From contig JAJFUH010000228.1 of NCBI GenBank assembly GCA_021372535.1, forward strand, positions 1 to 53,873: a DNA stretch of 53,873 nt, read 5' to 3'. Both the position numbers and the translations under genes were made by a program. The notes beneath the pieces were generated by a model that saw only the letters and a list, made by a program, of their open reading frames with translations, was not told the origin of the DNA and did not search any database. Positions 1 through 50,498 of the stretch are shown here, piece by piece. The number at the start of each line of letters is the position of its first letter. Position 1 is the stretch's first letter. Origin of the DNA: a bacterium. Lineage in GTDB: Bacteria; Latescibacterota; Latescibacteria; Latescibacterales; Latescibacteraceae.

Positions 1-1165
1 CGGGATTTTCACGATTAGCAGGATGACCATGATTAAAAATCCGGGTAATCCCTTCAATCCCGGTAATCCGGGTTCCGGGTTTTTGTCCTTAGATGAATCC
101 CTATGCGGCATCAACACATCTGCCTCCCGCACCTCCCCCAAAAAATCTGAACCGGGATTTTCACGATTAGCAGGATGACCACGATTAAAAAAATCCGGGT
201 AATCCCTTAATCCCGGTAATCCGGGTTCCAGGTTTTTGTCCTTAGATGAATCCCTATGCGGCATCAACTCATCTGCCTCCCTCACCTCCCCAAAAAAGCT
301 TTGAACCGGGATTTTCACGATTAGCAGGATGACCATGATTAAAAATCCGGGTAATCCCTTCAATCCCGGTAATCCGGGTTCCGGGTTTTTGTCCTTAGAT
401 GAATCCCTATGCGGCATCAACACATTTTCCACCCGCACTTCCCCCAAAAAAACTTTGAACCGGGATTTTCATGATTAGCAGGATGACCACGATTAAAAAA
501 TCCGGGTAATCCCTTCAATCCCGGTAATCCGGGTTCCGGGTTTTGTCCTTAGATGAATCCCTATGCGGCATCAACACATCTGCCTCCCGGCAATCCCCCA
601 AAAAACTTGAACCGGGATTTTCATGATTAGAAGGATGACCACGATTAAAAAATCCGGGTAATCCCTTTCATCCCGGTAATCCGGGTTCCGGGTATTTGTC
701 CTTAGATGAATCCCTATGCGGCATCACACATCTGCCTCCCGCACCTCCCCCAAAAAACTTTGAACCGGGATTTTCACGATTAGCAGGATGACCGCGATTA
801 TAAATCAGGGTAATCCATTAATCCAGGCAATCCGGGTTCCGGGTTTTTGTCCTTAGATGAATCCCTATGCGGCATTAACTCATCTGCCTCCCGCACTTCC
901 CCCAAAAACTTTGAACCATGATTTTCACGATTAGCAGGATGACCGCGATTAAAAAAATCCGGGTAATCCCTTAATCCCGGCAATCCAGGTTCCAGGTTTT
1001 TGTCTTTAGATGAATCCCTATGCGGCATTAACTCATCTGCCTCCCGCACCTCCCCCAAAAAACTTTGAACCGGGATTTTCATGATTTACAGGATGACCAC
1101 GATTTAAAAAAATCCGGGTAATCCCTTCAATCCCGGTAATCCGGGTTCCGGGTATTTGTCTTTAT
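1..1165. repeat. Tandem array of a ~153-bp unit, eight copies
   Basis: The same unit recurs with starts at 1, 153, 307, 461, 613, 766, 917 and 1071, so the period is 151-154 bases. The last copy is cut off near 1165 and the first starts at the window edge, so the array may be longer. Copies differ by scattered substitutions and 1-3 base indels. Each unit holds a core of CCGGGTAATCCC / CCCGGTAATCCGGG, which can fold on itself, and a conserved block GATGAATCCCTATGCGGCAT. The opening part (GATTAGCAGGATGACCA) resembles the ACAGGATT-type intergenic repeats at 25842 and 37682. Because the period is not a multiple of three and frames break between copies, it does not look coding. There are no unique spacers, so it is not CRISPR. 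Confidence 0.95.
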
Positions 1166-7188: not shown

Positions 7189-7581
7189 ATGGAATTAACT
7201 TTTAAAAGTCTTGTGATAAAGTCTGTACGTGTGGATATAAGCTGTCAAGGGTCGTCACAAAGCGCCGATTTACATGCCCTTGACAGCATCAAAACAATAC
7301 ATTTCATTATCGGGCTCGTGAAAACCATACTTTTTCACAGCCCTCTTAATACATTGATAAAATTTAATCTTATTGAAGAATTTGAAAAGAACTTTTTTAA
7401 AAAACTTGTTACTTCAGTATTTAATGATTTTGTAAGTACCATGCAGGATATTATCAGCACTGATCAATTCATCAGAGACTTGCCTTCATTCCTGGGATCA
7501 TCCAATAACATTATCAGACAAGACTTTGTTTCAGCTATCGGTGCTACTCATGCAATCGAAGGCACAGTATTACACAGCTAA
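7189..7581 (+). CDS. Small ORF whose first third is a dispersed structured repeat
   Basis: A 130-codon ORF with AAGGGG about 7 bases before its ATG and a candidate promoter at 7057. Residues 4-53 (FKSLVIKSV...DLHALDS...VKTILFHSPL) match the N-terminal end of the membrane fusion protein encoded at 27336-28721 and a minus-strand reading of 35700-35850. Residues 54-130 are helical-looking and unique in the window. It may be a real small protein, a truncated relic of a longer gene, or an ORF created by the repeat. The good ribosome site is the only reason to list it as coding. Function unknown. Confidence 0.4.
   Translation: MELTFKSLVIKSVRVDISCQGSSQSADLHALDSIKTIHFIIGLVKTILFHSPLNTLIKFNLIEEFEKNFFKKLVTSVFNDFVSTMQDIISTDQFIRDLPSFLGSSNNIIRQDFVSAIGATHAIEGTVLHS
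7195..7344 (+). repeat. Structured dispersed repeat, copy 1 (two hairpins)
   Basis: About 150 bases nearly identical to the inverted copy at 35699-35850. It contains a perfect 11-bp stem GCTGTCAAGGG (7241-7251) / CCCTTGACAGC (7277-7287). A second stem pairs GGGCT-GTGAAAA (7312-7324) with TTTTCAC-AGCCC (7332-7343), with one bulge. A diverged third copy forms the 5' end of the gene at 27336-28721. Confidence 0.85.
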
Positions 7582-17242: not shown

Positions 17243-17391
17243 AGAATGCTCCGTTGCATAGTAAGAGGGCAGTGAACAAGTATCTTTTTCACGCACCCGA
17301 AGGCGAAATACCGGTATCGTATTTATGGTTTATGATCTGTAGTCTTTGGTTTTTATAGTATGTTTATGCCTGTCCTTTTGCTTTTTTCCCC

Positions 17392-27233: not shown

Positions 27234-27265
27234 TTTTATTTCCGGCCCGGAATATTCATGAAAAT

Positions 27266-27297
27266 ATTCAACCACGAAGACACAAAGACACAAATAT
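27266..27297. repeat. Dispersed 'cacaaagacacaaa' intergenic repeat
   Basis: The string accacgaagacacaaagaca plus trailing caaatat lies between the permease and membrane-fusion-protein genes. A near match (caccacaaagacaccaagac) lies at 35618. It creates a false N-terminal extension of the permease frame. Confidence 0.6.
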
Positions 27298-27335
27298 CTA
27301 TAACATATTATTTATACTGCTTTTAGTAAATAAAA

Positions 27336-28721
27336 TCATATACCTTTCTGCGCAGATTCATTCAATGCCACTTCACTCAACGGTATTACACTCTGACCTT
27401 TTGTGAAATCTCCATAAATGACGGTGTATTCATTGTTGCGGGGTCCTATGTCGATCTCGCATTTTTCGTAATCCTCTTTTTCCCCGGTAAAAATATAGTA
27501 TTTCATCTTTTCCTTCATGATGCAGTCGTTTGAAACATATAAAACGTCATCGAGCTGAGCGATAAAAATCTCGCATCTGACAGTCATGCCGGGCTTCAAT
27601 ATTGGGTCGGATTTGTCCAGCATAACGACAAAATCGAACACTTTCGTTCGTGATTTTTCATCTTTTTTATAACTCAGCCTGCCGATCTCGATGATTGTAC
27701 CTTCGAAGGGGATTGATGGAAAAGCATCGAGCCGGACCATTACTTTTGCATTCAATTGTATTTTGCCGATATCCGTTTCATTCACCGTAGATTTCACTTT
27801 CATCCGGCTCATATCCGGGACACAGGCAAATTGTCCGCCCTGATATAATTCATCGCCCACTTTTACCGTCTGATTGGTTCTCCTGTTTTCAAGGAGCTGC
27901 ATCATCCCGTTCAGCGGACTTCGTATCGTCAGCTGTGTCAATGCGGTGTACGCGTCATTTATATCATTTTCCAGCTGAAATATTTTTATTTTCTGAATTT
28001 TCAATTCGTTTTCAAGAACAACCTGTGTCAGCTGGTAGTTTTTTTCCGCTTTGTTATATCTTATAAGTTCTCTTTCGTATTCGAGTTTTTTGATCTCTTT
28101 CTTTTTTTCCGATTCAAATTCATACTTATCCAATTGTATTTTGTTGAGATTTAAAACGGCCCTGCTTGAAGCAAGCTCTGTTTCCAGTGCTTTCACGGTG
28201 CTTTTATGCTGTACGATCAGCTTATTGAGATTGGCCTGTTCGGTTTCCAGTCTGTTCTGCTGTTCGACAAGAAATTTCAGCACACCATCCCTATCTATCT
28301 GGGCTATTGAATCACCCATGGAAACCTGGGTGCCATGTTCCACAAGTTCCACAAGTTTCATCTGCCAGCCATATTTCCATCCAATATACGGAATAGAAAC
28401 AATGCGGGAATTTACCGCTTCCAACTCTCCGGTTTCATTGAGTGTTGCAATAAATTCACCTTTATTGATCTTATAATTCCGCACATCTTTTGCCGATCCG
28501 CCAAAAAGCCACAATACAATACAAACTGTCAGAAAAACCATAACAGGCAGTATGATTTTAAGAGGGCGGTTCCGAAGCATTGTTTTCACACGTCCGACAA
28601 CGAAACGTAATGAGGTACCGCTGTCAGGGGCATGCAAACCGTCATCATCCCGTGACGGCTGCTGAGAGCTTAAAACCATGCTTACCAGGTTTTTCACCAG
28701 GCTTTTAAATCTTATTCTCAT
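27336..28721 (-). CDS. HlyD/MacA-type membrane fusion protein with repeat-derived N-terminus
   Basis: 461 residues. Residues 1-54 are a cytoplasmic extension (FKSLVKNLV...GLHAPDS...VKTMLRNRPL) homologous to the dispersed repeat at 7195 and 35699. One membrane helix (about 56-75) follows, then a lipoyl-like half, a long coiled-coil hairpin (about 135-245, rich in Leu/Glu/Lys), the second lipoyl half and beta-barrel (VNETDIGKIQLNAKVMVRLDAFPSIPFEGTIIEI), and a membrane-proximal domain. It overlaps the upstream gene by 17 bases and precedes the permease. Such adaptors link an inner-membrane pump to an outer-membrane channel. It has no good Shine-Dalgarno; translation is probably coupled to the upstream gene. 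An alternative start without the repeat would be near Met15. Confidence 0.9.
   Translation of the reverse strand: MRIRFKSLVKNLVSMVLSSQQPSRDDDGLHAPDSGTSLRFVVGRVKTMLRNRPLKIILPVMVFLTVCIVLWLFGGSAKDVRNYKINKGEFIATLNETGELEAVNSRIVSIPYIGWKYGWQMKLVELVEHGTQVSMGDSIAQIDRDGVLKFLVEQQNRLETEQANLNKLIVQHKSTVKALETELASSRAVLNLNKIQLDKYEFESEKKKEIKKLEYERELIRYNKAEKNYQLTQVVLENELKIQKIKIFQLENDINDAYTALTQLTIRSPLNGMMQLLENRRTNQTVKVGDELYQGGQFACVPDMSRMKVKSTVNETDIGKIQLNAKVMVRLDAFPSIPFEGTIIEIGRLSYKKDEKSRTKVFDFVVMLDKSDPILKPGMTVRCEIFIAQLDDVLYVSNDCIMKEKMKYYIFTGEKEDYEKCEIDIGPRNNEYTVIYGDFTKGQSVIPLSEVALNESAQKGI
28560..28712 (-). repeat. Diverged copy 3 of the structured repeat, inside a coding region
   Basis: The 5' end of the membrane fusion protein gene aligns with copies 1 and 2 over about 150 bases: TTTAAAAGcCTgGTGA..., then AAGCT.TCA..., then TGCATGCCCcTGACAGC. 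The outer stem is only partly kept here, but CCGTCA...TGACGG forms an inner hairpin. The peptide reading is conserved with the 7189 ORF. Confidence 0.7.
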
Positions 28722-29937
28722 TGTTATTCATTTTCTTTTTATTCACATCGATAAAAGGATCGGACAAGGCAATTACATCCCCCTCTTCCAATCCTTTTTC
28801 AACAATAATAAAGTCATTATTCGCCACCCCGACTTTCACTTCGGTTTTTTTATACGAATCGCCGTTTTTCAAATAGACAAAATCTTTATTCTGGTCTTTG
28901 ATTATCGCTTCCAGGGGTATGAACAGGACATTGTCGATTGTATCGACAATGATTTTGCAGCTCACCGTTATTCCGGGCATTAAATTTTTTGAGGTTCCTT
29001 CGATCAGTATTCTTACCGGAAAGATTTTAACTTTCGATTTTTTTTCTTCATCCTTATACTTTGCCAGTGCGGCGATTTCTATCACTTTACCGGTATATAC
29101 GGTATCCGAAAAGGCATCCAATTGAATATCGACCTTCTGGTTCAGTTTGATTTTTGAAATATCAACCTCGTTGATTTCCGTCTCTGTTTTCAATTCCCGA
29201 AGGTCCGGCAGATCGATCAACGGCATTCCCGACCAGACCTGATCGCCAACCTGACATTTATTGCCGGTACTCCAGTTTTTACGAATAATTGCGACACCGG
29301 CGCTTCGACTGATTATCACCAAATTCTTTAATGTTACATTCGCCTCCGCTAAATTACTCACCAGCTGTTTGATTTTCAATTCGGACTGATGCTGTTCCTC
29401 CTTATGTATGTTCTTCTGGTTCTCGATTTCATCTTGTGCCTTATCAAGAGAAATTTTCGCCTGTTCCAAAGTGAGCCTGATCTCTTTCTTTTTAACATCT
29501 GATTCGTATGTTGTGAGCTCCAGCTCGATCTGAGATATCTGATGAGATATTTCAAAAACCTTCAAATCCGCTTCCAGCTCCTGTATTTTCGAATCCTGTA
29601 CGGCTTTCTGTTTCTCGAGCTCAGCTTTGGCAATTTCGAGCTCGGCATTGGCGTCTATAATCGCTTTCTGAACTTCCGACGGATCGAATACAATAACCGT
29701 ATCTCCTTCCGCAACCTCCGTGCCGTCGTCGATAATTTTCGTAATTTTCAAGGCACCGAATCTCCACGACATCGCAGGAGAGGAAATATTGATCGATCTC
29801 GTTGCCTGTACTTCTCCGGTTTCGACGACGTTGATATGAAACTCGCCCTTTTTCGCCTTGTATGTCTGAACGCTGCTTTTTGTTTTAGGGCTGCAGCATA
29901 CAAAGAGTAAAAACGAAATGAACAGTAATTTTTTCAT
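28705..29937 (-). CDS. Membrane fusion protein (HlyD/MacA type), probable lipoprotein
   Basis: 410 residues. The N-terminus MKKLLFISFLLFVCCSP looks like a lipoprotein signal with a two-Cys box, so it is probably anchored by lipid rather than by a helix. It has a lipoyl half (about 35-85), a coiled-coil hairpin (about 90-190, with ELEKQKAVQDSKIQELEADL), the second lipoyl half, and the shared beta-barrel motif INEVDISKIKLNQKVDIQLDAF. The C-terminal domain ends in VEKGLEEGDVIALSDPF. It starts 1 base after the stop of the upstream paralogue and runs 17 bases into the next one, so the three adaptors are translationally coupled. Adaptor role as for its neighbours; substrate unknown. Confidence 0.9.
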   Translation of the reverse strand: MKKLLFISFLLFVCCSPKTKSSVQTYKAKKGEFHINVVETGEVQATRSINISSPAMSWRFGALKITKIIDDGTEVAEGDTVIVFDPSEVQKAIIDANAELEIAKAELEKQKAVQDSKIQELEADLKVFEISHQISQIELELTTYESDVKKKEIRLTLEQAKISLDKAQDEIENQKNIHKEEQHQSELKIKQLVSNLAEANVTLKNLVIISRSAGVAIIRKNWSTGNKCQVGDQVWSGMPLIDLPDLRELKTETEINEVDISKIKLNQKVDIQLDAFSDTVYTGKVIEIAALAKYKDEEKKSKVKIFPVRILIEGTSKNLMPGITVSCKIIVDTIDNVLFIPLEAIIKDQNKDFVYLKNGDSYKKTEVKVGVANNDFIIVEKGLEEGDVIALSDPFIDVNKKKMNNNENKI

Positions 29938-31876: not shown

Positions 31877-33577
31877 ATGAGCATTGGTATTCAGGCGCTG
31901 CTCGCATTTTCGCCGATACTCGCCGCCGCGGTTCTGCTCGTCGGCTTCCGCTGGCCTGCAAAGCATGCCATGCCCGCCGTCTATGTCATAGCCGCCCTCA
32001 TAGCCCTGACCGCATGGGGGATGTCGTTCGATCTCGTTGCGGCATCGGCCATCCAGGGGCTTGTCATCACTTTTGACCTGCTCTTTATCATCTTCGGCGC
32101 CATTTTGCTCCTGAATACCCTCAAACACTCCGGCGCGGTAACCGCCATCCGCTCCGGCTTCACGAGCATCAGCTCCGACCGCCGTGTCCAGGTGGTCATC
32201 ATCGCCTGGCTGTTCGGATCGTTTCTCGAGGGCGCCGCAGGATTCGGCACACCGGCGGCTATTGCCTCTCCGCTCATGGTGGCGCTCGGTTTCCCGGCCA
32301 TGGCGGCGGTCATGATCGGCATGATGATCCAGAGCACGGCGGTCACTTTCGGCGCGGTCGGCACTCCGATACTCATCGGTGTCCGGGGTGGACTCGAAAA
32401 TCCCGAAATCAATACCCAGCTCGCCGCCGCGGGAATCAACATGGACAGCTACCTCAGCATCATCGCGAGCAGATCCGCAGTATTCCATGCCATCGCAGGC
32501 ACCCTGATTCCGCTCTTCATGGTCATGATGCTCACCCGCTTCTACGGCCGTAACAAATCATGGACAGAGGGACTCTCGATTACGCCGTTCGCCCTGTTCG
32601 GCGGGCTCGCGTTCACCGTACCCTACGTTCTCACCGGCGTATTCATCGGCCCGGAATTCCCCTCGCTCCTCGGTTCGCTCATCGGCCTGGCAATCGTGAC
32701 TTTCGCGGCAAAGAAGGGATTCCTCGTGCCGAAAGACACCTGGGATTTCGCCCCCTCCGACCAGTGGGACCCCGAATGGATGGGCGCTATCAAAATCAAT
32801 CTCGACAGCCAGACCGGCAAAACGATGCCGACATGGCTCGCGTGGTGTCCCTATGTGCTCGCCGCTCTCTTCCTTGTTATCACCCGTCTGCCGCAGCTTC
32901 ATGTGGGAGCGGCCCTGAAAACGGTGACCTTCAAATGGGCGGGCATCTTAGGCACGAATATCACGGCATCCTCGCAGCCGTTATACCTGCCCGGAACGAT
33001 TCTCATAACCGTCGTCTGCATCACGTTCTTCCTCCACCGTATGGACTTCGGCGAGCTGCGGGCGGCGGTCAGCGAATCGAGCAGAATTCTCCTCGGCACC
33101 GGATTTGTCCTCATTTTCACCGTGCCGATGGTGCGTATCTACATGAACTCGGGGACGAACACCGCCGGCCTGCTCAGCATGCCGGTCGCCATGGCGCAGT
33201 GGGTTGCCGTCAACGTCGGGAGCATCTGGCCGCTGTTCGCGCCATCAATCGGGGCGCTCGGGGCATTTATCGCGGGGAGTAATACGGTGAGTAATCTCAT
33301 GTTCAGCCTGTTCCAGCACAGTGTCGCCGAACGTCTCATGATACCGGGAGCGATGGTTGTGGCCCTCCAGGCTGTGGGCGCCGCCGCGGGGAACATGATC
33401 GCTATCCACAATGTCGTCGCCGCATCAGCGACAGTCGGGCTTCTGGGACAGGAGGGGGCAACGCTCAGAAAAACGATTCTTCCAACCCTGTACTATGTCA
33501 CCCTCGTCGGGATCATGGGGCTTATCGCCATCTATGTGCTCCATATCAGCGACCCGGTTGCAGCGCTCAAGGGATAA
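31877..33577 (+). CDS. lldP: L-lactate permease family transporter
   Basis: 566 residues, about the usual length. It has many membrane helices along its length and the family's characteristic stretch IIAWLFGSFLEGAAGFGTPAAIASPLMVALGFP, then QSTAVTFGAVGTPILIGV. A late motif GAFIAGSNTVSNLMFSLFQ and LQAVGAAAGNMIAIHNVVAASATVGL are also typical. Members take up L-lactate, D-lactate or glycolate with protons across the inner membrane. GAGGAGG lies 7 bases before the ATG. No lactate dehydrogenase or regulator lies beside it; it is flanked by the adaptor operon and a REP/RAYT zone. The symbol is by family only. Confidence 0.95.
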   Translation: MSIGIQALLAFSPILAAAVLLVGFRWPAKHAMPAVYVIAALIALTAWGMSFDLVAASAIQGLVITFDLLFIIFGAILLLNTLKHSGAVTAIRSGFTSISSDRRVQVVIIAWLFGSFLEGAAGFGTPAAIASPLMVALGFPAMAAVMIGMMIQSTAVTFGAVGTPILIGVRGGLENPEINTQLAAAGINMDSYLSIIASRSAVFHAIAGTLIPLFMVMMLTRFYGRNKSWTEGLSITPFALFGGLAFTVPYVLTGVFIGPEFPSLLGSLIGLAIVTFAAKKGFLVPKDTWDFAPSDQWDPEWMGAIKINLDSQTGKTMPTWLAWCPYVLAALFLVITRLPQLHVGAALKTVTFKWAGILGTNITASSQPLYLPGTILITVVCITFFLHRMDFGELRAAVSESSRILLGTGFVLIFTVPMVRIYMNSGTNTAGLLSMPVAMAQWVAVNVGSIWPLFAPSIGALGAFIAGSNTVSNLMFSLFQHSVAERLMIPGAMVVALQAVGAAAGNMIAIHNVVAASATVGLLGQEGATLRKTILPTLYYVTLVGIMGLIAIYVLHISDPVAALKG

Positions 33578-33579
33578 AA

Positions 33580-33600
33580 GGGCAGCGACGGGGGACTGTC
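33580..33600. repeat. Degraded REP palindrome
   Basis: GGGCAGCGACGGGGGACTG follows directly on the lactate permease stop. It matches the REP consensus, but the right arm has lost its terminal CCC. Confidence 0.6.
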
Positions 33601-33628
33601 TCTATGAAAATATCTCGAATATTATGAT

Positions 33629-33650
33629 GGGTAACCACGGGGGGTTACCC
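33629..33650. repeat. REP palindrome next to the RAYT gene
   Basis: GGGTAACC-acgggg-GGTTACCC, a perfect 8-bp stem with a 6-base loop, followed by CCTAC. It lies just beyond the 3' end of the RAYT gene, where such transposases commonly have their cognate REP. Confidence 0.9.
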
Positions 33651-33659
33651 CTACGGTTA

Positions 33660-34313
33660 TTAAATATTGCCATCAGGATTTTCACGATCCATTTCCCATC
33701 GGGCCGGATTCGTTTCGATATATTCCCGGATTCGATTCCATTCGGTCTCGTCCCGGATGATATGCTCATAATAATTGCGCTGCCACAACCGTCCATGAAA
33801 CGGCGGCCATCCCATCAATTTCATACCATCAGCATACCGTTTCGTCGTCATCGTTTTGAACCGGTGAACGATATCCGGCAACGACAACGCAGACCCCGTA
33901 GGGGCAATCCCACCGTGGTTGCCCATTACCTCCGGCAAATCATCGTCTGGGCAGCCACAGGGGGCTGCCCCAACAGGGAGGTTACGGTCTTCAAAAGGGT
34001 AGCCACAGGGGGCTACCCCAACAGAACGATTAAGAGGAACTGTCCCGACAAGCACAATGATTGCATGAACGTGATTGGGCATGATAATAAACGCATCGGC
34101 CTCGACCCCAGAATAATGCGACGGAATCCCGTCCCAAACCGCTTTCACCATTCGCCCGGCATCGTTCAATATCATCGAGCTGTCCGTAATCCCGCCGAAC
34201 AGGCACTCCCGGCCGTACGAGCACATCGTTACAAAATATGCGCCGTTTGCGGTGTAATCGTAACCCGCAAGACGGATCGACCGTCGATGATGTATCCGTG
34301 GATCGAATACCAC
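33660..34313 (-). CDS. REP-associated tyrosine transposase (RAYT, Y1/HUH family)
   Basis: 217 residues. Motifs: N-terminal YDYTANGAYFVTMCSYGRECLFG, the HUH site MPNHVHAI with His81 and His83, the catalytic Tyr181 or Tyr182 in WQRNYYEHIIRDETEWNRIREYI, and ETNPARW. Such single-strand transposases nick and join at REP hairpins. The start is GTG with GGAG 7 bases upstream. Between the HUH motif and SLPDIVHRFKTMT there is an insert of about 50 residues (VGVAPCGYP..., VGAAPCGCP..., MGNHGGIAPTG), encoded by three REP palindromes lying inside the gene. Motifs are intact, so it is probably active or recently active. Confidence 0.93.
   Translation of the reverse strand: MVFDPRIHHRRSIRLAGYDYTANGAYFVTMCSYGRECLFGGITDSSMILNDAGRMVKAVWDGIPSHYSGVEADAFIIMPNHVHAIIVLVGTVPLNRSVGVAPCGYPFEDRNLPVGAAPCGCPDDDLPEVMGNHGGIAPTGSALSLPDIVHRFKTMTTKRYADGMKLMGWPPFHGRLWQRNYYEHIIRDETEWNRIREYIETNPARWEMDRENPDGNI
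33902..33924. repeat. REP-like palindrome inside the RAYT gene (a)
   Basis: GGGCAA ... TTGCCC around a loop of CCACCGTGG type; encodes part of the protein's insert. One of three in-frame palindromes in this gene. Confidence 0.7.
33949..33970. repeat. REP palindrome inside the RAYT gene (b)
   Basis: GGGCAGCC-acaggg-GGCTGCCC: perfect 8-bp stem and the same loop as copy (c). Encodes the GAAPCGCP stretch on the minus strand. Confidence 0.9.
33997..34018. repeat. REP palindrome inside the RAYT gene (c)
   Basis: GGGTAGCC-acaggg-GGCTACCC: perfect 8-bp stem. Differs from copy (b) by a C-to-T change in the left arm that is matched by a G-to-A change in the right arm. Encodes the GVAPCGYP stretch. 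Confidence 0.9.
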
Positions 34314-34448
34314 TATAATTCTCCGCGGAATGTGCCCGGTTCCGTCAATGGGCTCATTGCAGTTCGCTGTTTCGTGTCCATTTTCCGGATAAACACTGCT
34401 GGCTGTAAAGATGAGGATTTGCTATCCAACGGACAAGCCTAAAGAACG

Positions 34449-35051
34449 TTATACGGCATTTTCTCGACTCGTTGGCCGGATCCTTTTATAATATTGCCTG
34501 GCTTCTTCTGTTACGCGTTCGATAAACTCCGTTTTGCCTTTTGTATATGCCACCCGGTCATTACGGTGGCCTTCCGAGAGCTTTATCTTCAGATTTCCAT
34601 ACTCCTCCGCAACTTTGGGATGCTCAATAAGGTAGTCACGAAAAAGAAGCCGGTCCCAGTGTTCAAAATGACCCTCGACCATGTGGATGTGGTGTGTTCT
34701 GATTCCGCCCGAATCACGCCTGATAAACCATGCATAGAAAGGCGGTACATCGTCCCCCCATGTCGGCCTCCAGAAGTAATCGTATCCCTGGGCCTCAAGA
34801 ATGGGCGGCACGACTTCCCTGGTTTCCTCAAGCGAAGTCACTTCGACCAGCATGTCGATGATCGGTTTCGCGACAAGGCCCGGGATGGCTGTGCTGCCGA
34901 AGTGTTCGATCCGCCTGATCAATCGAGCGGGGAGGCAGGACAGGAGATGTTTTTTCTCCTCCCCGAACAGATACGGCCATCGGGGATCATAAGGCTTGAG
35001 AGCTATTTCATCCTTCAGCACACGATTGATTTTTTCCTGTAGTGTTTCCAT
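34449..35051 (-). CDS. GrpB family (UPF0157) nucleotidyltransferase-like protein
   Basis: 200 residues, normal for the family. The signature RIEHFGSTAIPGLVAKPIIDMLVEV matches the nucleotidyltransferase-fold G-S motif with a following D (KPIIDMLV). Further typical parts are HIHMVEGHFEHWDRLLFRDYL and YGNLKIKLSEGH.NDR..YTKGK. Members are found alone or fused to dephospho-CoA kinase; the substrate is not established. It sits between an intact RAYT and a decayed RAYT, both on the same strand, so it may have travelled or been bracketed by REP insertions. A GAGAGAGA run precedes the ATG. Confidence 0.93.
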   Translation of the reverse strand: METLQEKINRVLKDEIALKPYDPRWPYLFGEEKKHLLSCLPARLIRRIEHFGSTAIPGLVAKPIIDMLVEVTSLEETREVVPPILEAQGYDYFWRPTWGDDVPPFYAWFIRRDSGGIRTHHIHMVEGHFEHWDRLLFRDYLIEHPKVAEEYGNLKIKLSEGHRNDRVAYTKGKTEFIERVTEEARQYYKRIRPTSRENAV

Positions 35052-35072
35052 TTTTCTCTCTCTGCTCTATAA

Positions 35073-35093
35073 GGGCAGTCACGGGGGATAATC
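35073..35093. repeat. Degraded REP palindrome
   Basis: GGGCAGTC-acgggg then GATAATC in place of GACTGCCC. It lies just upstream of the GrpB-family gene start. Confidence 0.6.
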
Positions 35094-35144
35094 AAGGCGT
35101 TCAGAAAGAACCACCTAAATGAAAGGTTATAAAAACTTAATAAG

Positions 35145-35166
35145 GGTAGCCACAGGGGGCTACACC
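35145..35166. repeat. REP palindrome, one mismatch
   Basis: GGGTAGCC-acaggg-GGCTACAC; identical to copy (c) in the RAYT gene except for one base in the right arm. It lies at the 3' edge of the decayed RAYT. Confidence 0.8.
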
Positions 35167-35300
35167 TACCAAGGCGACCTGGACCGTTTATTAAACGGTG
35201 ACCATCCATTCGGACGTCATCAGAATACCGTTTTACCGTCATCGTTTTAAACCGGTGAACGATTTTCGGCAGGGATAACGTATATCCGTTTAAACCGCAG

Positions 35301-35322
35301 GGGCAACCCACCGTGGGTGCCC
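35301..35322. repeat. REP-like palindrome inside the decayed RAYT
   Basis: GGGCA-a-CCCA-ccg-TGGG-TGCCC: 9-bp stem with one bulge; the counterpart of palindrome (a) at 33902 in the intact RAYT. Confidence 0.75.
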
Positions 35323-35359
35323 ATTTTTCCGGTATGATATCAGAAGGGCAGTCCAATAT

Positions 35360-35381
35360 GGGCAGTCACGGGGGACTGCCC
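35360..35381. repeat. REP palindrome inside the decayed RAYT
   Basis: GGGCAGTC-acgggg-GACTGCCC: perfect 8-bp stem, followed by CCTAC as at 33651. A partial extra arm (GGGCAGTCC) lies just before it. Confidence 0.88.
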
Positions 35382-35698
35382 CTACCGGAGGCAACAATCC
35401 CGGCCATAGACACACATCGTTATAAAATAAACGCCCCTTTCGTTATAATCGCAGTCCAAAAGAAGGATCGACATTCGATATAGAACATCTTTACAAAAAA
35501 ATTATTCACTGCTCGGATTTTCATCAGGTTACACATGAAATATATAGAATTTATAATGTTGTCAAGGAAAAATTTTGATTATACTACATTCAATCCTGAT
35601 ATTCATGAAAGCTTTTCACCACAAAGACACCAAGACACAAACAGATATAACAGATTATTAATACTATCCTAAGTAAATATCTATCGGTCACATCTAAG

Positions 35699-35850
35699 AG
35701 GGCTGTGAAAAAGTATATTTTTCACGAGCCCTATGAAGAAATGTGTTGTTTTATTGCTGTCAAGGGCATGTAAATCGGCACTTCGTGCCGACCCTTGACA
35801 GCTTATATCCACACTTACCGACTTTATCACAAGACTTCTAAATAAAATAT
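35699..35850 (-). repeat. Structured dispersed repeat, copy 2 (inverted)
   Basis: About 150 bases, nearly the same as copy 1 at 7195 but in opposite orientation. Hairpin 1: AGGGCT-GTGAAAAA (35699-35712) pairs with TTTTTCAC-AGCCCT (35718-35732), 14 pairs with one bulge. Hairpin 2: GCTGTCAAGGG (35756-35766) pairs with CCCTTGACAGC (35792-35802) and encloses a nested perfect hairpin TCGGCAC-ttc-GTGCCGA (35775-35791). A minus-strand frame through it stays open, but the flanks are repeats, so no gene is called. Confidence 0.88.
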
Positions 35851-43298: not shown

Positions 43299-43321
43299 GA
43301 TGAGCCTTTCCCTTCCAAAGA

Positions 43322-43374
43322 GGGTAACCACAGGGGGTTACCCCTACAGTCAGATAATCACGGGGGGTTACCCC
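43322..43374. repeat. Two REP palindromes in tandem
   Basis: The first is GGGTAACC-acaggg-GGTTACCC (43322-43343), perfect. The second (about 43353-43374) keeps acgggg-GGTTACCCC, but its left arm is degraded to GATAATC. Both are followed by CCTAC. They lie just upstream of rmuC. Confidence 0.85.
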
Positions 43375-43472
43375 TACAAATAATGAAATGAACAGACAAT
43401 TATTTCGTTATATATAATACCAAAAATAAACAAATATACAGTTATTTTCTTACCCATAAACTCTTTTCACTC

Positions 43473-50186: not shown

Positions 50187-50253
50187 CCAGGTCTTATAAA
50201 GCACGGAGTGTCATTCCCATGAAAACGGAAATCCATAATCCAATGGACAATAA

Positions 50254-50275
50254 GAGCAGTCACGGGGAACTGCTC
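50254..50275. repeat. REP-like palindrome between the parS sites
   Basis: GAGCAGT-cacgggga-ACTGCTC, a 7-bp stem with the same loop type as the other REPs. The G-to-A change in the left arm is matched by C-to-T in the right arm. A degraded 'CATTCCC...GGAAATCC' repeat precedes it. Confidence 0.75.
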
Positions 50276-50498
50276 CAACAGGTATAACAATAGCATGACC
50301 GTAATTTATAGTGACGATAACGCGTCGTTTTTTAACACACTGATAATGAGCCTGAATCTCATACCTAACCACCTGTACCATTTGTTTTACGTCGTTCTCG
50401 CATAATTTTCCTGCTGAAGCGCGTTATATGACATCGCTTTCATTTTTTATTTTTATGTATTACTCTTTTTTTTATCCTACAATTCCGGGAAATGGTTT

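What the first reader, a model, noticed from the sequence alone, without database searches (positions are those of the whole stretch)
7195..7344. Hairpin-rich repeat that doubles as the N-terminus of a membrane fusion protein
Copies at 7195 and 35699 (inverted) are almost identical over ~150 bases and form two strong hairpins, one nested. A diverged copy at 28560-28712 is the first ~50 codons of a membrane fusion protein, and the peptide reading is kept in all three. Either a gene 5' end became a mobile structured element, or a palindromic element was recruited as a protein extension.
Basis: seen in the sequence. Interest (0 to 1): 0.75.

Follow-up and report, generated by a model that had tools for sequence, protein, structure and literature searches.

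The report
MITE inserted in-frame in a gene
The repeat is a small, non-coding jumping DNA piece present in more than 140 copies in this genome, and one old copy landed so neatly at the start of a transporter gene that it added about 49 amino-acid codons without breaking it; the element family looks new but is of a known kind.

Summary
The 148-bp repeat is one of about 146 or more dispersed copies in this 5.35-Mb genome. It has ~16-bp imperfect terminal inverted repeats, a 4-bp target-site duplication (consensus TTAA, YTAR-like; exact in 36 of 81 copies against 12 expected) and two hairpins supported by covariation. It is a MITE. One 448-aa IS1182-family transposase gene in the genome lies between ends that match it: 26 of 26 bases agree at the right end.

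Copy C (28557-28709) is an insertion into the start of a membrane fusion protein gene. Removing 147 bp, including one TTAA copy, restores an ordinary N-terminus, MRIRFKIILPVMVFL..., in frame. The target TTAA also holds the stop codon of the overlapping upstream gene, so both frames survived. The element did not come from a gene 5' end: MFP homologues lack it, and no full-length copy examined lies mainly inside a called gene.

The peptide reading is not shown to be selected. In copy C, changes fall 16/15/15 over codon positions, synonymous changes number 11 against 10.8 expected, and chance keeps the frame open with probability 0.40. Copies sit at stop codons more often than expected (16 of 101 against 2.4). 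Rickettsia palindromic elements are the precedent.

The parts
7202..7349 (+). MITE copy A with both TSD copies: TSD TTAA 7202-7205, element 7206-7345, TSD TTAA 7346-7349
   Evidence: CM match 174 bits
7241..7287 (+). hairpin 1 of copy A (outer stem GCTGTCAAGGG.../...CCCTTGACAGC with nested inner stem)
7312..7343 (+). hairpin 2 of copy A, containing most of the 3' terminal inverted repeat
7189..7581 (+). 130-aa ORF with copy A inserted after codon 5; empty-site ORF is 82 aa. Shine-Dalgarno-like AAGGGG upstream, but negative coding score and no Pfam match; may not be a gene
35694..35841 (-). MITE copy B with TSD TTAG/TTAG; element 35698-35837
28558..28708 (-). MITE copy C with TSD TTAA at 28705-28708 and 28558-28561; element 28562-28704; 147 bp (49 codons) inserted in frame
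27336..28721 (-). membrane fusion protein gene (HlyD_D23/HlyD_3) with 49 codons after codon 5 derived from the MITE insertion
28705..29937 (-). upstream membrane fusion protein gene; its TAA stop (28705-28707) lies in the TSD of copy C; overlaps the downstream gene by 17 bp
17262..17309 (-). partial MITE copy (3' hairpin only, 83% over 48 bp)

Best explanation
The repeat is a non-autonomous DNA transposon (MITE) of about 140 bp, with a variant about 26 bp longer carrying an extra nested hairpin. It is probably mobilised in trans by an IS1182-family DDE transposase encoded once in the same genome. Shown: terminal inverted repeats, a 4-bp YTAR-like target duplication, co-varying stems and an IS with matching ends. 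Inferred: that this transposase moves it. Copy C is an old insertion at the TTAA within the 17-bp overlap of two tandem membrane fusion protein genes. The duplicated TTAA kept the upstream stop codon. Because element plus duplication is a multiple of 3 and the element's frame happens to be open, the downstream gene stayed in frame with 49 extra codons between MRIRF and the transmembrane segment. The extra peptide is most likely tolerated passenger sequence, if it is translated at all; a start at the ATG inside the element (28580) would give a normal-length protein.
For: CM search: about 146 copies at E<0.001. In 1.63 Mb fetched: 160 copies, 110 full. TSD 4/4 in 36 of 81 against 12.4 +- 2.6 shuffled, maximum 22 of 10,000; no signal at other widths. 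TIR match and co-change of T/G at 5' position 12 with A/C at 3' position 139, Fisher p = 1.6e-8, not corrected for phylogeny. IS at C167: right end identical 26/26 to the MITE 5' end, TTAA at both ends; NF033551 IS1182 above cut-off; an 87% identical IS in another contig fixes the IS ends. Empty site restores MRIRFKIILPVMVFLTVCIVLWLF. MFP homologues lack residues 1-20. No codon-position or S/N signal. Covariation.
Against: No transposition was observed. The IS left end is less similar to the MITE than the right end is. More than half of the copies (45 of 81) lack an exact TSD, as expected of old insertions but not proven. The frame-0 open count in ungapped copies (32 of 41) slightly exceeds a neutral simulation (25 +- 3), though copies are related and S/N shows nothing. 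No unoccupied orthologue of the C site was found; the empty site is inferred.
Confidence: 0.87

Rival explanations
1. Gene remnant: a membrane fusion protein 5' end was copied around the genome and later folded into hairpins.
For: Copy C is in frame with an MFP; the family consensus frame is open over 50 codons.
Against: TIRs and 4-bp TSDs; restored gene at the empty site; none of 110 full copies mainly in a called gene; homologues in 64 genomes lack it; C is the most diverged full copy, not a source-like one.
Confidence: 0.02
2. Domesticated element: the MITE-derived 49-aa segment is a functional, selected part of the MFP, for example a cytoplasmic regulatory extension.
For: Frame open after 46 substitutions and a 3-bp insertion; the original start codon is still present.
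Against: Changes 16/15/15 over codon positions; 11 synonymous against 10.8 expected; chance of staying open 0.40. An alternative start at codon 48 would bypass it.
Confidence: 0.1
3. REP/RAYT-type element mobilised by an IS200/IS605-like Y1 transposase.
For: Palindromic, intergenic, high copy; one Y1_Tnp gene in the genome.
Against: A 4-bp TSD is not expected of Y1 transposases (general knowledge); the Y1 locus has no element-like ends; the DDE IS ends match instead.
Confidence: 0.03
4. Structured RNA gene or regulator family (sRNA or 3'-UTR element) kept for host function rather than a transposon.
For: Stem covariation; enrichment at stop codons with the 3' hairpin facing the gene in 14 of 16.
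Against: TSDs, TIRs and absence from the same-genus relative point to mobility; no Rfam match. Stem covariation is also expected if folding or TIR pairing matters for transposition.
Confidence: 0.08

Closest known systems
Rickettsia palindromic elements (RPE)
   Same: About 150 bp, palindromic, inserted in frame in genes while keeping the host frame open (review PMC10969869; original Ogata 2000/2002 cited there)
   Different: Here almost all copies are intergenic; one clear in-frame case; TSD and candidate transposase are identifiable
QMITE1/QMITE2 of Coxiella burnetii (PMC5896051)
   Same: MITEs of 150-400 bp, about 45-78 copies, often at 3' ends of genes and overlapping stop codons
   Different: Different TSD lengths (2-3 and 7-11 nt there); no effect on the 5' end of genes of known function was reported there. 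Sequences were not compared here
IS1182 family (incl. IS1272)
   Same: The transposase passes the NCBIfam IS1182 cut-off
   Different: IS1272 replaces target stem-loops without TSD (PMC5678879); here a 4-bp TSD is seen and targets show no extended dyad symmetry
REP/BIME with RAYT
   Same: Palindromic intergenic repeats
   Different: No matching Y1 transposase; TSD present

Membership tests
MITE | short, multicopy, dispersed, no transposase | tested here: met
   about 146 copies, mostly about 148 or 174 bp matched length
MITE | terminal inverted repeats | tested here: met
   about 16 bp imperfect TIR; ten positions match in 45-55 of 55 copies, six mismatch in about half or more
MITE | target-site duplication | tested here: met
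   4 bp, 36/81 exact against 12.4 expected
MITE | ends shared with an autonomous element | tested here: met
   26/26 at one end, 17/19 at the other
MITE | mobilised in trans | not testable with these tools
   needs a transposition assay
IS1182 family (the partner IS) | transposase in family | tested here: met
   NF033551 288.5 bits against cut-off 270; also above the NF033581 IS5 cut-off
Rickettsia palindromic elements | recurrent in-frame insertion in unrelated genes | tested here: not met
   one clear case (C) among 101-102 testable copies; A is doubtful
Rickettsia palindromic elements | sequence homology to RPE families | not tested
   no RPE sequences were compared
REP/RAYT | Y1 transposase with matching ends | tested here: not met
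Known structured RNA (Rfam) | match above gathering score | tested here: not met
   none

The most novel reading that the evidence does not exclude
An IS1182-type MITE whose 4-bp target contains TAA/TAG preferentially uses gene stop codons, so insertion rebuilds the stop and drops a hairpin directly after it; at overlapping genes the same rule plus a multiple-of-3 length lets it add a tolerated, possibly functional, N-terminal segment.
Probability: 0.15. Interest if true: 0.6.

Novelty: new member of a known kind. Interest (0 to 1): 0.36.

Why it matters
It gives this bacterial lineage a defined MITE-IS pair, and a clean example of how a mobile palindrome can enter a coding sequence without damage: overlapping genes, a stop codon inside the target duplication, a length divisible by three and an open frame. 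The excess of insertions at stop codons is testable in other IS1182 MITEs. It also shows that 'same peptide in several copies' need not mean the peptide is selected.

Tried and rejected
Y1/RAYT association: no matching ends. Rfam: none. Exact core pattern in GTDB contigs: no other genome. Extended dyad symmetry at targets, as for IS1272: none. Similarity of the 24 bases upstream of A and C: rank 147 of 5,995 pairs, not remarkable. Orientation bias in tandem genes: 35 against 37, none. The gene caller was a home-made hexamer model; starts are approximate, stops are firmer. Identical copies at contig ends are probably assembly edges of one repeat and not independent.

Full report
Observation. 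Copies A (7201-7350) and B (35693-35842, minus) share 148 bp at 90.5%. Copy C (28557-28709, minus) matches the family consensus end to end at 69% and forms the first codons of an HlyD/MacA-like membrane fusion protein. A fourth, partial copy lies at 17262-17309. Both hairpins of A and B fold far better than shuffles; C's do not clearly.

Family. A DNA search found 40 scored copies. A covariance model built from 21 copies found 150, the scoring cap, about 146 of them at E<0.001. The list does not contain copy C, so it is a lower bound. In 1.63 Mb of fetched sequence, chosen around copies and so not an unbiased sample, a profile search gave 160 non-overlapping copies, 110 full-length. There is a main class of about 148 bp matched length and a class about 26 bp longer with an additional hairpin. 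The same-genus relative G001 has none. G003 of the same family has 16 matches; of nine read, one is a diverged copy and eight belong to a sister family with the same two-hairpin layout and other ends. The exact core is absent from other GTDB contigs.

It is a transposon. The four bases before AAG and after CCCTC agree exactly in 36 of 81 copies (12.4 expected, maximum 22 of 10,000 shuffles) and no other width shows this. Target consensus is TTAA, YTAR-like. The ends form an imperfect inverted repeat of about 16 bp, and a T/G change at the 5' end goes with the complementary change at the 3' end (related copies, so the p-value is optimistic). Stems co-vary: 12 pairs changed on both sides against 3.7 in shuffles.

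Partner. The genome has two DDE_Tnp_1 genes. One, at C167:311-1657 (448 aa), is an IS1182-family transposase in an IS whose right end is identical over 26 bases to the MITE 5' end, with TTAA on both sides. A second IS, 87% identical, in a contig binned as Methanoregula, ends at the same bases. It is the only such gene in this genome; the same-genus relative has a 39% relative. That it moves the MITE is inferred.

The membrane fusion protein. Removing 147 bp (element plus one TTAA) leaves ATG AGA ATA AGA TTT AAA ATC ATA CTG, that is MRIRFKIILPVMVFLTVCIVLWLFGGSAKD, like the short N-termini of paralogues and homologues. No homologue above the cut-off among 64 genomes aligns with residues 1-20. 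So the gene and its start most likely predate the element. The TTAA target contains the TAA stop of the upstream MFP gene, which overlaps this gene by 17 bp, so the duplication preserved both.

Is the peptide selected? In C, 46 differences from the consensus fall 16, 15 and 15 on codon positions 1, 2 and 3; 11 are synonymous against 10.8 +- 2.5 expected; the same substitutions at random sites leave the frame open with probability 0.40. Family-wide, the synonymous share is close to its neutral expectation (0.265 against 0.248), frame 0 is open in 42 of 102 copies, and the chance that a shuffled consensus has some open frame of six is 0.20. The slight excess of open ungapped copies (32 against 25 +- 3) is not independent evidence. 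Weak selection cannot be excluded with one copy.

Where copies sit. None of 110 full copies lies half or more within a called gene; this gene caller places the MFP start downstream of C, so C itself counts there as intergenic. A stop codon lies wholly inside the TSD in 16 of 101 copies against 2.4 expected (p = 3e-9), and in 7 of 39 copies with exact TSD (p = 4e-5); in 14 of 16 the gene faces the element's 3' hairpin. Part of this may be selection against other sites, since insertion at a stop codon is harmless. Tandem orientation is unbiased.

Copy A sits in a 130-aa ORF after codon 5, also in frame, with a ribosome-binding-like AAGGGG, but the empty-site ORF (82 aa) has a negative coding score and the ORF has no family match. 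I do not count it as a second case.

Verdict. A new MITE family with an IS1182-type partner; copy C is an in-frame insertion at the start of a pre-existing gene. Precedents for in-frame palindromes (RPE) and for MITEs at stop codons (QMITE) exist (PMC10969869, PMC5896051).

Noticed in passing
window 1-1156: Eight tandem copies of a unit of about 153 bp (CGGGATTTTCACGATTAGCAGGATGACC...), beginning at the contig start.
   Followed up: no
window 33574-35388, 43316-43377, 50248-50282: A second dispersed palindromic repeat, GGG(T/C)AG(C/T)CAC(A/G)GGGGGCT(A/G)CCCCTAC, in several copies.
   Followed up: no
window 27252-27332 and 35599-35679: An 81-bp repeat (ACCACAAAGACACCAAGACACAAA...) at 79% identity, one copy directly downstream of the MFP gene and one 13 bp from MITE copy B.
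   Followed up: no
L196-L203 (G003): A sister repeat family in another genus with the same two-hairpin layout and the shared motif CTTGACAGCAAC.A.ACAACATATTTCAAT but different ends.
   Followed up: partly
L194:898-2415: An 87% identical IS1182 element in a contig binned as Methanoregula sp. from Lac Pavin: horizontal transfer or misbinning.
   Followed up: partly
L183 around 9711: A MITE copy appears to split one gene: the empty site gives a 510-aa ORF with coding signal on both sides.
   Followed up: no
family of 101 testable copies: Excess of copies with a gene stop codon inside the TSD, mostly on the element's 3' side.
   Followed up: partly
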